Assembly (NCBI GenBank): GCA_949127775.1
Contig: CASBQF010000008.1
Span: forward strand, 1 to 44,119
Direction: 5' to 3'
DNA length: 44,119 nt
Origin: Oscillatoriales cyanobacterium PMM_0080
Lineage (GTDB): Bacteria; Cyanobacteriota; Cyanobacteriia; Cyanobacteriales; Microcoleaceae
A program made the position numbers and the translations under genes. This document shows, in pieces, positions 37,197 through 38,568 of this stretch. The stretch's first letter is position 1. Each line of letters opens with the position of its first letter. Below the pieces are notes generated by a model. That model saw nothing but the letters and a program-made list of their open reading frames with translations, had not been told where the DNA came from and did no database searches.

Positions 37197-37928
37197 ATGG
37201 CACGATTAAATCAGATTATCGCGATCGAGAAAGGCATCAAAAGCCGATCGATCCAAGAACTAGCAGAAGCTCAAAAAGCACTCCAGAAGCCCGCCGTGCT
37301 TTCTGGAATCTCCCGCACATACCGCCCCAAAGACGAAGAAGGCGAACAACTGCCGCCCGAGTCCAAAAAAGTTGAAGTCAAAGCCGAAGAAATTATCCGA
37401 AAAACAACCGAAGTTTTGACCAAACTCTTCGACGTAACCGCAACCAAAGATTGGACAAATTGTAGCGCCCGCGCCGACGTAACTGTAGATGGAAACGTGC
37501 TGTTGAGCCAAGTCCCCGTCAGCTATTTGCTATTCATTGAAAAGCAGTTAGCAGATTTGCAAGCATTCATCAAAAAACTTCCAGTCTTAGATGCTTCGGA
37601 GACTTGGAACTTCGATGCTTCGGCCGACTGCTGGGGAACAGAACCCGTGCAAACTCTCAAAACTTTTAAAACTCCGCGCAATCACGTTAAAGCTGAAGCT
37701 ACCGAGCACCATCCGGCTCAAGTTGATGTTTATTACGAAGATATTACGATCGGCTACTGGCGCACTGTCAAGTTTTCTGGAGCTTTACCAGCGCGGCGGA
37801 TCAATGAGTTGCTGCAAAGAGTGGAAATATTGCAGCAAGCTGTGATGTTCGCCCGCGAAGAAGCTAATAATTCGGAAGTTGAGGAACAGAGAGTGGGAGA
37901 ACGAATTTTTCAATTTATTTTCCGCTAA
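37197..37928 (+). CDS. Conserved protein, probably DUF7873 family
   Basis: A 243-residue soluble protein that I recognise as a conserved family found in cyanobacteria and actinobacteria (probably DUF7873). Recognisable blocks are MARLNQIIAIEKGIKSR, LSGISRTYRPKDEEGEQLPPE, LFDVTATKDWTNCSARADV, and PVSYLLFIEKQLADLQAFIKKLPVLD. The middle appears beta-rich and the C-terminus helical. No catalytic motif is evident. It is the only protein gene next to the tRNA-like RNA unit, ending 75 bp before it on the same strand, so the two may form one transcription unit. Function unknown. Confidence 0.78.
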   Translation: MARLNQIIAIEKGIKSRSIQELAEAQKALQKPAVLSGISRTYRPKDEEGEQLPPESKKVEVKAEEIIRKTTEVLTKLFDVTATKDWTNCSARADVTVDGNVLLSQVPVSYLLFIEKQLADLQAFIKKLPVLDASETWNFDASADCWGTEPVQTLKTFKTPRNHVKAEATEHHPAQVDVYYEDITIGYWRTVKFSGALPARRINELLQRVEILQQAVMFAREEANNSEVEEQRVGERIFQFIFR

Positions 37929-38003
37929 TTGCTTGTTTTTTTGATAGTTATGGTTTAAGATATAAACAGAGTACAAGTTCAATCTAAAACTTCAACTTAA
38001 ACC

Positions 38004-38085
38004 GTACAACTGTGACAGTGCAGGTTCGACTCCTGTCTTCGTTCAATAGCGAAGTAGCCCAATTGGTAGAGGCCGCGTTACGTAC
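38004..38085 (+). ncRNA. tRNA-like RNA 1 with permuted halves, candidate Y RNA
   Basis: The T-arm half comes first: GTGACAGT, then GCAGG-TTCGACT-CCTGT (38020-38036), then CTTCGTT. A four-base linker leads to the D-arm half: AGCGAAG, TA, GCC..GGC. The acceptor-like stem CTTCGTT (38037-38043) pairs with AGCGAAG (38048-38054), 7 of 7 with one G-T. An anticodon-like helix is formed by 38004-38014 (GTACAAC, T bulge, GTG) with 38074-38085 (CGCGTT, AC bulge, GTAC). The variable segment is five bases. The fold matches a circularly permuted tRNA whose anticodon end is open, as in YrlA Y RNAs. Confidence 0.5.
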
Positions 38086-38145
38086 AAATTCAATAGCAAG
38101 CTATTACTCTAAACTCAGCATTCTCCGCCGATCGCTAAAACGAAT

Positions 38146-38258
38146 GTCAGGAACAAATAGGTCATCGAGGTTGCTGGCTCATATCCAGCTCCCCCTACCA
38201 AACGCAGGGGGGTAGCTCAATCGGTAGAGCGCGATGTTATCAATCTTAAATCCTTGAC
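38146..38258 (+). ncRNA. tRNA-like RNA 2 with permuted halves, candidate Y RNA
   Basis: The T-arm half is CATCG (38163-38167), AGGTT, GCTGG-CTCATAT-CCAGC (38173-38189), TCCCCCT (38190-38196), ACCA. After five bases comes the D-arm half: AGGGGGG (38206-38212), TA, GCTC-AATCGGTA-GAGC (38215-38230), G, CGATG (38232-38236). All four cloverleaf stems pair: acceptor 7 of 7 (one G-T), D 4, anticodon 5, T 5. Beyond the anticodon stem, GTCAGGA (38146-38152) pairs with TCC-T-TGAC (38251-38258). The T-loop is not canonical. No intact linear tRNA can be built from this region. Confidence 0.55.
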
Positions 38259-38296
38259 TTAAATGTGATAGCGTGCGCAAATGGGCGGTAAATTGG

Positions 38297-38329
38297 AACC
38301 CAGTAGTAAGGTCAGAACTACTGGGTTTT
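38297..38329 (+). terminator. Rho-independent terminator after the tRNA-like RNAs
   Basis: AACCCAGTAGT (38297-38307) and ACTACTGGGTT (38317-38327) form a perfect 11-bp hairpin with a 9-base loop, followed by a short T run. It lies 39 bases after the lower stem of tRNA-like RNA 2 and would end that transcript. Confidence 0.75.
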
Positions 38330-38409
38330 GTGCTAATTTATAAATCAAAGCGATACGCTTTACTAAAAAAAATGCCCGAGCAAGTTTTCAACCAATAAAG
38401 TATCAGTCA

Positions 38410-38535
38410 TTTCGATCGTTTGGACTTCAGTCCGATCTCCGGCTGCGGACTGAAGTCCGCACTACAAACAAAAACCGTTGGTAGTGCGGACTTCAGTCCG
38501 CTTTTATGCTGCGGACTGAAGTCCGCACTACAAAC
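38410..38535. repeat. GGACTTCAGTCC palindrome cluster
   Basis: Three copies of the GCGGACTTCAGTCCGC palindrome are present. Two of them form a large hairpin: the arms at 38481-38501 and 38511-38531 (GTAGTGCGGACTTCAGTCC type) are perfect with a 9-base loop. They occupy the region directly upstream of the Ser/Thr kinase gene. Confidence 0.88.
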
Positions 38536-38568
38536 TAATCTGATTGTGGTCAATCCACCGGACATGAT

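What the first reader, a model, noticed from the sequence alone, without database searches (positions are those of the whole stretch)
38146..38258. A complete tRNA cloverleaf encoded in permuted order (T-arm half before D-arm half)
All four stems of a canonical tRNA pair when the two halves are joined at the anticodon loop, but the 3' half lies upstream of the 5' half. The acceptor-like stem is capped by a 9-base linker. Beyond the anticodon stem, a further helix (GTCAGGA with TCC-T-TGAC) continues outward. Permuted tRNA genes are known in some algae and archaea. In bacteria, YrlA-type Y RNAs, ligands of the Ro60 protein, have the same topology with a tRNA-mimicking module. The simplest reading is a Y RNA; the alternatives are a decayed tandem tRNA pair or a true permuted tRNA. 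Chance pairing of the acceptor (7), D (4), anticodon (5) and T (5) stems is very unlikely.
Basis: partly seen in the sequence, partly recalled or inferred. Interest (0 to 1): 0.9.

Follow-up and report, generated by a model that had tools for sequence, protein, structure and literature searches.

The report
Tandem tRNA-mimic RNA beside DUF7873
The spotted permuted tRNA shape is real and is half of a longer non-coding RNA that carries two tRNA look-alikes in tandem, sits next to a gene of unknown function in cyanobacteria, actinobacteria and many phages, and may act by imitating tRNA.

Summary
In detail: window 38146-38258 folds as a tRNA whose T-arm half precedes its D-arm half, with a capped 7-bp acceptor stem. 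It is not a solitary Y RNA. It is module B of an RNA of about 360 nt: module A (37968-38110, a second permuted tRNA mimic), module B (38124-38289) and a 3' hairpin (38294-38330), 39 nt after a DUF7873 gene (37197-37928). Compensatory changes support both modules in cyanobacterial relatives. A module-B model built only from cyanobacteria finds the RNA beside DUF7873 in Streptomyces, Nonomuraea, phages and IMG/VR viruses: 29 of 33 loci at E<=0.01. Two modules occur in 22 of 34 flanks of DUF7873, against 0 of 340 shuffles and 0 of 367 other windows. Rfam YrlA matches far below its cut-off; TROVE is absent from 18 of 18 virus records searched. So the module is YrlA-like, but the RNA is a separate family tied to DUF7873, whose fold matches nothing known. 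Most likely it is a DUF7873-linked tRNA mimic, decoy or scaffold; this step is inferred. In passing: a Ro60-fold protein unseen by Pfam, beside arrays of Y-stem RNAs.

The parts
37197..37928 (+). DUF7873 protein (PF25283), 243 aa, unknown function; the RNA begins 39 nt after its stop codon
   Evidence: Pfam E 2.3e-114; found beside the RNA in 31 of 33 loci tested, in L062 only as 24 residues; AlphaFold pLDDT 87.9, no PDB or viral fold match at E<=0.001
37968..38110 (+). Module A: first permuted tRNA mimic with outer stem AGAGTA/TACTCT
   Evidence: A7: 97.8% of cells paired, 15 of 30 pairs with changes on both sides; Rfam YrlA 23.6 bits at 38019-38073
38020..38073 (+). Module A core: T arm 38020-38036, acceptor 38037-38043 with 38048-38054, D arm 38057-38073
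38124..38289 (+). Module B in full: helices 38124-38129/38284-38289 (outermost pair T-T in the window), 38133-38137/38269-38273, 38146-38152/38251-38258 and the permuted tRNA core
   Evidence: A6: 95.3% paired, 24 of 39 pairs with changes on both sides; model R1 score 202 bits (the window is one of the sequences the model was built from)
38163..38236 (+).
38197..38200 (+). ACCA directly after the acceptor strand, like discriminator plus CCA
   Evidence: NCCA at this place in 24 of 51 modules that the scan found in 31 flanks
38294..38330 (+). 3' hairpin, 14 bp, loop AAGGTCAGA with GGNYA
   Evidence: GGNYA in or at the loop of the best hairpin in 21 of 26 loci; not called a terminator by the consensus scan

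Best explanation
The feature is the second half of a non-coding RNA of about 360 nt made of two tandem tRNA mimics, each circularly permuted (T half, capped acceptor, D half, with a long stem in place of the anticodon loop), followed by a GGNYA hairpin. It is encoded next to DUF7873 and probably forms a ribonucleoprotein with that protein or is controlled with it. Shown: the conserved fold, the two-module layout, and the genetic link to DUF7873 across phyla and phages. Inferred: that a transcript is made, and that the mimics occupy tRNA-binding enzymes (tRNA-cleaving defence or stress nucleases, or modification and decay enzymes) as uncleavable decoys or as a scaffold, because they show the elbow and acceptor surface but lack an anticodon loop, and because in several phages the pair sits inside tRNA arrays. 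I put the RNA and its link to DUF7873 at about 0.97, a shared RNP at about 0.6, and the decoy role at about 0.35.
For: Covariation in cyanobacteria on MAFFT alignments not fitted to the structure; RNAalifold recovers acceptor, T and D stems by itself, and the anticodon stem in module B. Held-out test: R1, built only from cyanobacteria, hits 29 of 33 DUF7873 loci at E<=0.01. In its 27 matches at E<=1e-6 (26 of 27 loci given; one row is a module A) 95.6% of cells pair and 38 of 39 pairs have changes on both sides, slid controls at most 43.6% (this alignment is fitted to the structure, which favours it). Two modules in 22 of 34 flanks against 0 of 340 shuffles and 0 of 367 other windows. Co-occurrence in 98 relatives: 26 with R1 at 78 bits or more, 23 of these with a DUF7873 match. 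tRNA genes within 2.5 kb of the pair in 5 of 7 annotated phage regions opened and in 10 of 23 viral loci scanned. A competitive-inhibitor role for the YrlA tRNA-like domain has been suggested by others (PMC7790460, passages read).
Against: No expression, binding or genetic data. No tRNA call in the window, in 13 of 23 viral loci or in the two actinobacterial loci. DUF7873 matches no known RNA-binding fold. Three genomes keep module B without a DUF7873 match (G013, G022, G034), and in 5 of the 23 with both the gene is interrupted or partial (G021, G024, G028, G040, G057). In L249 the RNA lies 5' of the gene and in L260 about 1 kb 3' of it. L268 (Microcoleus phage) has the protein but no RNA that I could find, and L261, a gene piece at a contig end, has none either.
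Confidence: 0.6

Rival explanations
1. A Y RNA proper: both modules are tethered to a Ro60/Rsr protein through their long stems and guide it or PNPase.
For: Full-length YrlA alignment. The window genome encodes a Ro60-fold protein, and 24 of 26 genomes with the RNA have that family (one, G005, only as fragments) against 30 of 72 without it; relatedness was not corrected for.
Against: Score 34.4 against a cut-off of 69. TROVE absent in 18 of 18 virus records and in 25 of 26 RNA-bearing relatives (only G065 has it); whether the viruses carry the Pfam-invisible family was not tested. The stem motif of the Ro60-linked array RNAs is absent from the window. The stable neighbour is DUF7873.
Confidence: 0.2
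2. An RNA-protein toxin-antitoxin pair: DUF7873 is a toxin or effector held by the tandem tRNA-like RNA.
For: Pairing of a small protein gene with a two-unit structured RNA, patchy spread (12 of 386 in the phylum), presence in phage and plasmid-collection records.
Against: RNA usually 3' of the gene; no nuclease or other fold recognised; no PADLOC match.
Confidence: 0.12
3. A cis-acting 3' element of the DUF7873 mRNA that senses tRNA-processing enzymes and sets its own expression.
For: Starts 39 nt after the stop codon; no promoter-like site found on this strand.
Against: RNA 5' of the gene in L249 and 1 kb away in L260; module B kept without a DUF7873 match in three genomes; elaborate two-module architecture.
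Confidence: 0.1
4. A precursor cut in the caps, as in permuted two-piece tmRNA, giving tRNA-like ends that carry CCA and can be charged.
For: NCCA directly after the acceptor in 24 of 51 modules; permuted order is that of two-piece tmRNA (recalled).
Against: 27 of 51 modules lack NCCA; caps vary from 4 to 89 nt, the limits of the scan; acceptor sequences differ from module to module; ARAGORN sees no tmRNA in the window.
Confidence: 0.08
5. Remnant of a tandem pair of tRNA genes.
For: The YrlA model also rings on ordinary genomes, as real tandem tRNAs would make it do (13 of 14 controls).
Against: Outer helices and both acceptor stems covary; no tRNA call in the window.
Confidence: 0.005

Closest known systems
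YrlA, bacterial Y RNA (Rfam RF02553; Salmonella YrlA structure 6CU1)
   Same: Circularly permuted tRNA mimic with capped acceptor and a long stem beyond the anticodon position (permutation of 6CU1 read in passages of PMC11472068)
   Different: Two modules in one RNA, DUF7873 as neighbour, no TROVE link seen, Rfam score half the cut-off
Permuted tRNA genes of algae and archaea (recalled)
   Same: 3' half before 5' half, cap between acceptor strands
   Different: No splice motif, no anticodon loop, no conserved anticodon seen
Permuted two-piece tmRNA (recalled)
   Same: T half with CCA upstream of D half
   Different: Full D arms, no tmRNA call by ARAGORN, tandem modules; a tag reading frame was not searched for
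Type III toxin-antitoxin systems (recalled)
   Same: Protein gene paired with a repeated structured RNA
   Different: RNA usually 3' of the gene, different protein, tRNA-like units
Phage tRNA arrays
   Same: Genomic setting in several phages
   Different: The RNA is not a tRNA and is not annotated as an RNA in the seven phage regions opened

Membership tests
YrlA / bacterial Y RNA | Permuted tRNA-like module with T arm, D arm and capped acceptor | tested here: met
YrlA / bacterial Y RNA | Rfam RF02553 gathering score of 69 bits | tested here: not met
   34.4 and 23.6 bits; 29.7-37.1 bits in five of eight other loci, no match at E<=0.05 in the other three
YrlA / bacterial Y RNA | Encoded near or with a TROVE-family Ro60/Rsr gene | tested here: not met
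   0 in the genome, 0 of 29 in the genus, 0 of 18 virus records, 11 of them IMG/VR records that may be fragments
YrlA / bacterial Y RNA | Binds Ro60 through its basal stem | not testable with these tools
   A Ro60-fold protein exists in the genome, binding unknown; the recalled stem motif was not tested statistically
YrlA / bacterial Y RNA | RNA of 90-150 nt with one tRNA-like domain | tested here: not met
   Two modules plus hairpin, about 360 nt; size range from passages of PMC8394870. That they form one transcript is inferred
Permuted tRNA gene | Halves join to a 7-nt anticodon loop with a splice motif | tested here: not met
   Internal loop of 10 and 14 nt in the window and variable in relatives, read by eye
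Linear tRNA or tmRNA | ARAGORN or Rfam tRNA/tmRNA call | tested here: not met
DUF7873-linked tandem RNA (family proposed here) | Two permuted modules beside DUF7873 | tested here: met

The most novel reading that the evidence does not exclude
DUF7873 and its tandem permuted-tRNA RNA form an undescribed mobile ribonucleoprotein, carried by phages of several phyla and by cyanobacterial and actinobacterial genomes, that shields tRNA or captures tRNA-attacking enzymes; it would be the first protein-RNA pair built on two permuted tRNA mimics without a TROVE-type Ro60.
Probability: 0.35. Interest if true: 0.95.

Novelty: new variant of a known kind. Interest (0 to 1): 0.82.

Why it matters
YrlA-type tRNA mimicry has been studied as a feature of Ro60 ribonucleoproteins. 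Here the same permuted fold occurs twice in one RNA locus, linked to an uncharacterised protein and spread among phages, with sequence turned over almost completely while the fold is kept. That makes a testable case of tRNA-mimic RNAs in phage-host conflict and gives DUF7873 a first functional lead. It also accounts for unannotated gaps of about 400-1200 nt after the DUF7873 gene in four of the seven phage records opened (Racecar, Phendrix, NiceHouse, Pam2), and puts in doubt small reading frames annotated over the RNA in Keelan and K479.

Tried and rejected
Simple Y RNA: rejected as a full account because of the second module, the DUF7873 link and the absent TROVE. Tandem tRNA remnant: rejected by covariation. 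YrlA counts across genomes: not used as presence counts, since the model also rings in control genomes (13 of 14 at E<=10, 10 of 14 at E<=0.1). For R1 I took 78 bits as the line after seeing the gap down to 46.8 bits; weaker hits there include array RNAs and tandem tRNAs. Profile comparison of the 477-aa protein with cyanobacterial Ro60 (E 0.06-0.07) and PDB sequence searches (TROVE entries at E 1.4 in the first, none in the second) gave nothing significant; the predicted fold decided. Promoter: a TATAAA at 37961-37966 looked tempting but lies too close to the start of the RNA, and the consensus scan found none on this strand, so co-transcription with DUF7873 is as likely. DNA matches to the window RNA in plasmid and phage collections: none by blastn; the protein search and the structural model found the distant copies. 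MIR-family hits are palindromic repeats. Literature: no paper in the held library contains DUF7873; searches on Y RNA, Ro60, tRNA operons and arrays, permuted tRNA and phage tRNA mimics listed none that by title, start of abstract or the passages I opened describes this pair. Recalled and not read (not held): Chen et al. 2014 reported Y RNAs in many bacterial and some phage genomes, so some of these loci may already be counted there as YrlA.

Full report
What was claimed. Every stem named is present at the stated place. No tRNA is found in the window, and no Rfam family reaches its cut-off. With permissive settings the best Rfam match of the region is YrlA, full length, 34.4 bits, E 1.2e-5, cut-off 69; a second, partial YrlA match lies at 38019-38073, 23.6 bits. 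Pairing alone is not overwhelming: the same stem set appears 3 times in 30 shuffles of the window, once in the real + strand and never on the - strand, and the single-sequence minimum-energy fold is different.

What is there. Searching 98 related genomes with 37940-38340 gave matches in 28, some of them only fragments. I aligned 24 loci from these; L053 was left out of both module alignments because its 5' part is replaced, and L051 also of module A because of a large insert, leaving 23 and 22 sequences. They show two tandem permuted tRNA modules. Module B (38124-38289): 39 pairs, 95.3% of cells paired, 24 pairs with changes on both sides; sliding partners drops this to at most 42.5% and 8 pairs. 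Module A (37968-38110): 30 pairs, 97.8%, 15 pairs with changes on both sides; slid at most 49.3% and 6 pairs; one of the five measures, further pair types, was not above its shuffles (462 of 500 reached it). The structures were read from the window row (B) and from L040 (A), which favours them over slid versions. RNAalifold, given no structure, returns the acceptor, T, D and outermost stems in both modules and the anticodon stem in module B; it does not return the two inner stems of module B's stalk, nor the anticodon stem and the GTAC helix of module A. After module B comes a 14-bp hairpin with a GGNYA loop.

The neighbour. The RNA begins 39 nt after the stop codon of a DUF7873 gene (PF25283). 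In a tblastn of flanking window proteins against 33 loci that hold the RNA or parts of it (some genomes twice), DUF7873 is found in 31, in and outside the genus, in L062 only as 24 residues, and not in L053 or L054; the kinase on the other side is found only in loci of the genus, within the 1.5 kb or so of flank held. In the 98 relatives a model of module B (R1) gives 26 genomes at 78 bits or more, the next at 46.8 bits. DUF7873 is matched in 30. Both: 23, of which five have an interrupted or partial gene (G021, G024, G028, G040, G057). RNA without a DUF7873 match: G013, G022, G034. DUF7873 without R1 at 78 bits: G030, G088 and G095, whose flanks hold a diverged RNA (G088 and G095 with two modules by the scan, G030 with one and the second visible by eye); G009, with a truncated gene and only the end of the RNA; G014, G045 and G089, gene fragments without the RNA.

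Across phyla and in phages. DUF7873 is found in 4 plasmid-collection records (Streptomyces, Nonomuraea), in 72 phage records and in 24 IMG/VR loci. I opened 2 of the 4 and 7 of the 72. R1, built from cyanobacteria alone, hits 29 of these 33 loci at E<=0.01. The exceptions are L256 and L269, where the structural scan finds two and one module; L261, a gene piece at a contig end related to L249; and L268, where I found nothing. L251/L252 and L249/L261 look like pairs of the same virus, so the loci are not all independent. In most the RNA is within a few hundred bases 3' of the gene; in L249 it is 5' of it and in L260 about 1 kb 3'. A scan for permuted modules finds at least one in 28 and at least two in 22 of 34 flanks of 600 nt, the window included; dinucleotide shuffles give 12 and 0 of 340, and other windows of the same loci 25 and 0 of 367, real tRNA arrays being among them. 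On 27 matches at E<=1e-6, from 26 of 27 loci given and none used to build R1, 38 of 39 pairs show changes on both sides and 95.6% of cells pair, slid at most 43.6%; the alignment was fitted to the model and so leans its way, and one of the 27 rows is a module A (L278).

Is it a Y RNA? The module has YrlA topology, and the YrlA crystal structure is known as a circular permutation of tRNA (PMC11472068, passages). But TROVE is absent from the genome, from all 29 genomes of the genus searched and from 18 of 18 virus records tested, eleven of which are IMG/VR records that may be fragments. The genome does encode a protein with the Ro60 fold, described below, and that family is in 24 of the 26 RNA-bearing relatives (G005 only as fragments) against 30 of the other 72, so binding remains open. 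The size, double module and neighbour set this RNA apart.

How it may work. tRNA mimics that lack an anticodon loop could occupy anticodon nucleases without being cut; the authors of PMC7790460 offer this for YrlA, fragments of which they did not detect (passages). The setting fits in part: tRNA genes lie within 2.5 kb of the pair in 5 of 7 opened phage regions and in 10 of 23 viral loci scanned, but not in the window. NCCA follows the acceptor in 24 of 51 modules, which could reflect tRNA ancestry, recognition by CCA-binding enzymes, or cutting as in two-piece tmRNA (recalled). The DUF7873 model is confident (pLDDT 87.9, pTM 0.71) but matches no solved or viral fold at E<=0.001, no PHROG, no PADLOC model and no paper of the held library by name.

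Found on the way. Contig C58 of the same genome carries 27 tRNA calls in L099, one of which, the tRNA-Lys at L099:10104-10174, is a normal-order tRNA-like module inside a Y-type stem (by eye); an RNA ligase; and, before a 477-aa protein, a set of RNAs with a shared stem. That protein has no TROVE match in Pfam (four homologues, where a vWA match appears) and none in NCBIfam (two homologues) and no significant sequence match to Ro60, but its predicted fold (a 95%-identical homologue, pLDDT 75.9) has Ro60/Rsr/TROVE structures as its first 13 PDB matches, best E 3.1e-12, TM 0.62. Relatives of it occur in 54 of 98 genomes. In 80 named cyanobacterial loci (the best 80 of 104 found) the shared stem occurs 137 times in 63 loci, all upstream of the gene on its strand, and never in five two-base block shuffles of each. 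The stems hold permuted tRNA modules, tRNA modules in normal order, and pieces like 23S rRNA: the GTPase-associated region (a 91-nt piece scores 64, shuffle maximum 41; the longer 231-nt piece 64 against 61), an exact 13-mer of the sarcin-ricin loop (too short to beat shuffles) and a helix 69-71-like piece (53, maximum 51); the Rfam 23S model hits the first at 44.7 bits, cut-off 50. The helix and loop names are recalled. These deserve a study of their own.

Noticed in passing
G000:C58:41855-43285 (L099:10855-12285) and L137-L216: 477-aa protein whose homologue is predicted to have the Ro60/Rsr fold and that Pfam TROVE misses; 54 of 98 relatives have it.
   Followed up: yes
G000:C58:40550-41450; upstream of the gene in 63 of 80 loci L137-L216: Arrays of RNAs with a common Y-type stem that hold permuted tRNA modules, normal-order tRNA modules or rRNA-like pieces.
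   Followed up: partly
L099:2660-2890 and L099:10380-10570: Pieces resembling the 23S GTPase-associated region, an exact sarcin-ricin 13-mer and a helix 69-71-like stretch in the same island.
   Followed up: partly
L099:83-6925: tRNA array with an RNA ligase of PF09414 plus tRNA_bind domain and a PIN-domain protein.
   Followed up: no
L243:6077-6152, L247:6030-6101, L258:6055-6129, L259:6077-6154: In some viruses a tRNA gene follows module B, before a hairpin of the GGNYA kind where one was scored (L243, L247, L258).
   Followed up: no
L246, L247, L269 3' flanks of DUF7873: By eye, the tRNA-like part of module A is replaced by a simple hairpin or lost while module B is kept.
   Followed up: no
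window 38430-38540: Palindromic repeat units (GCGGACTTCAGTCCGC type) that give false MIR-family hits; likely a dispersed repeat.
   Followed up: no
L264:572-1100: Gordonia phage Phendrix has a tmRNA match, 89 bits, in its tRNA array that is not in the annotation shown.
   Followed up: no
G089:C25, G059:C465, G078:C59, G086:C6: In 4 of the 10 TROVE-bearing relatives a listed YrlA match lies within 1 kb of the TROVE match, as expected for ordinary Y RNAs; the listing was capped.
   Followed up: partly
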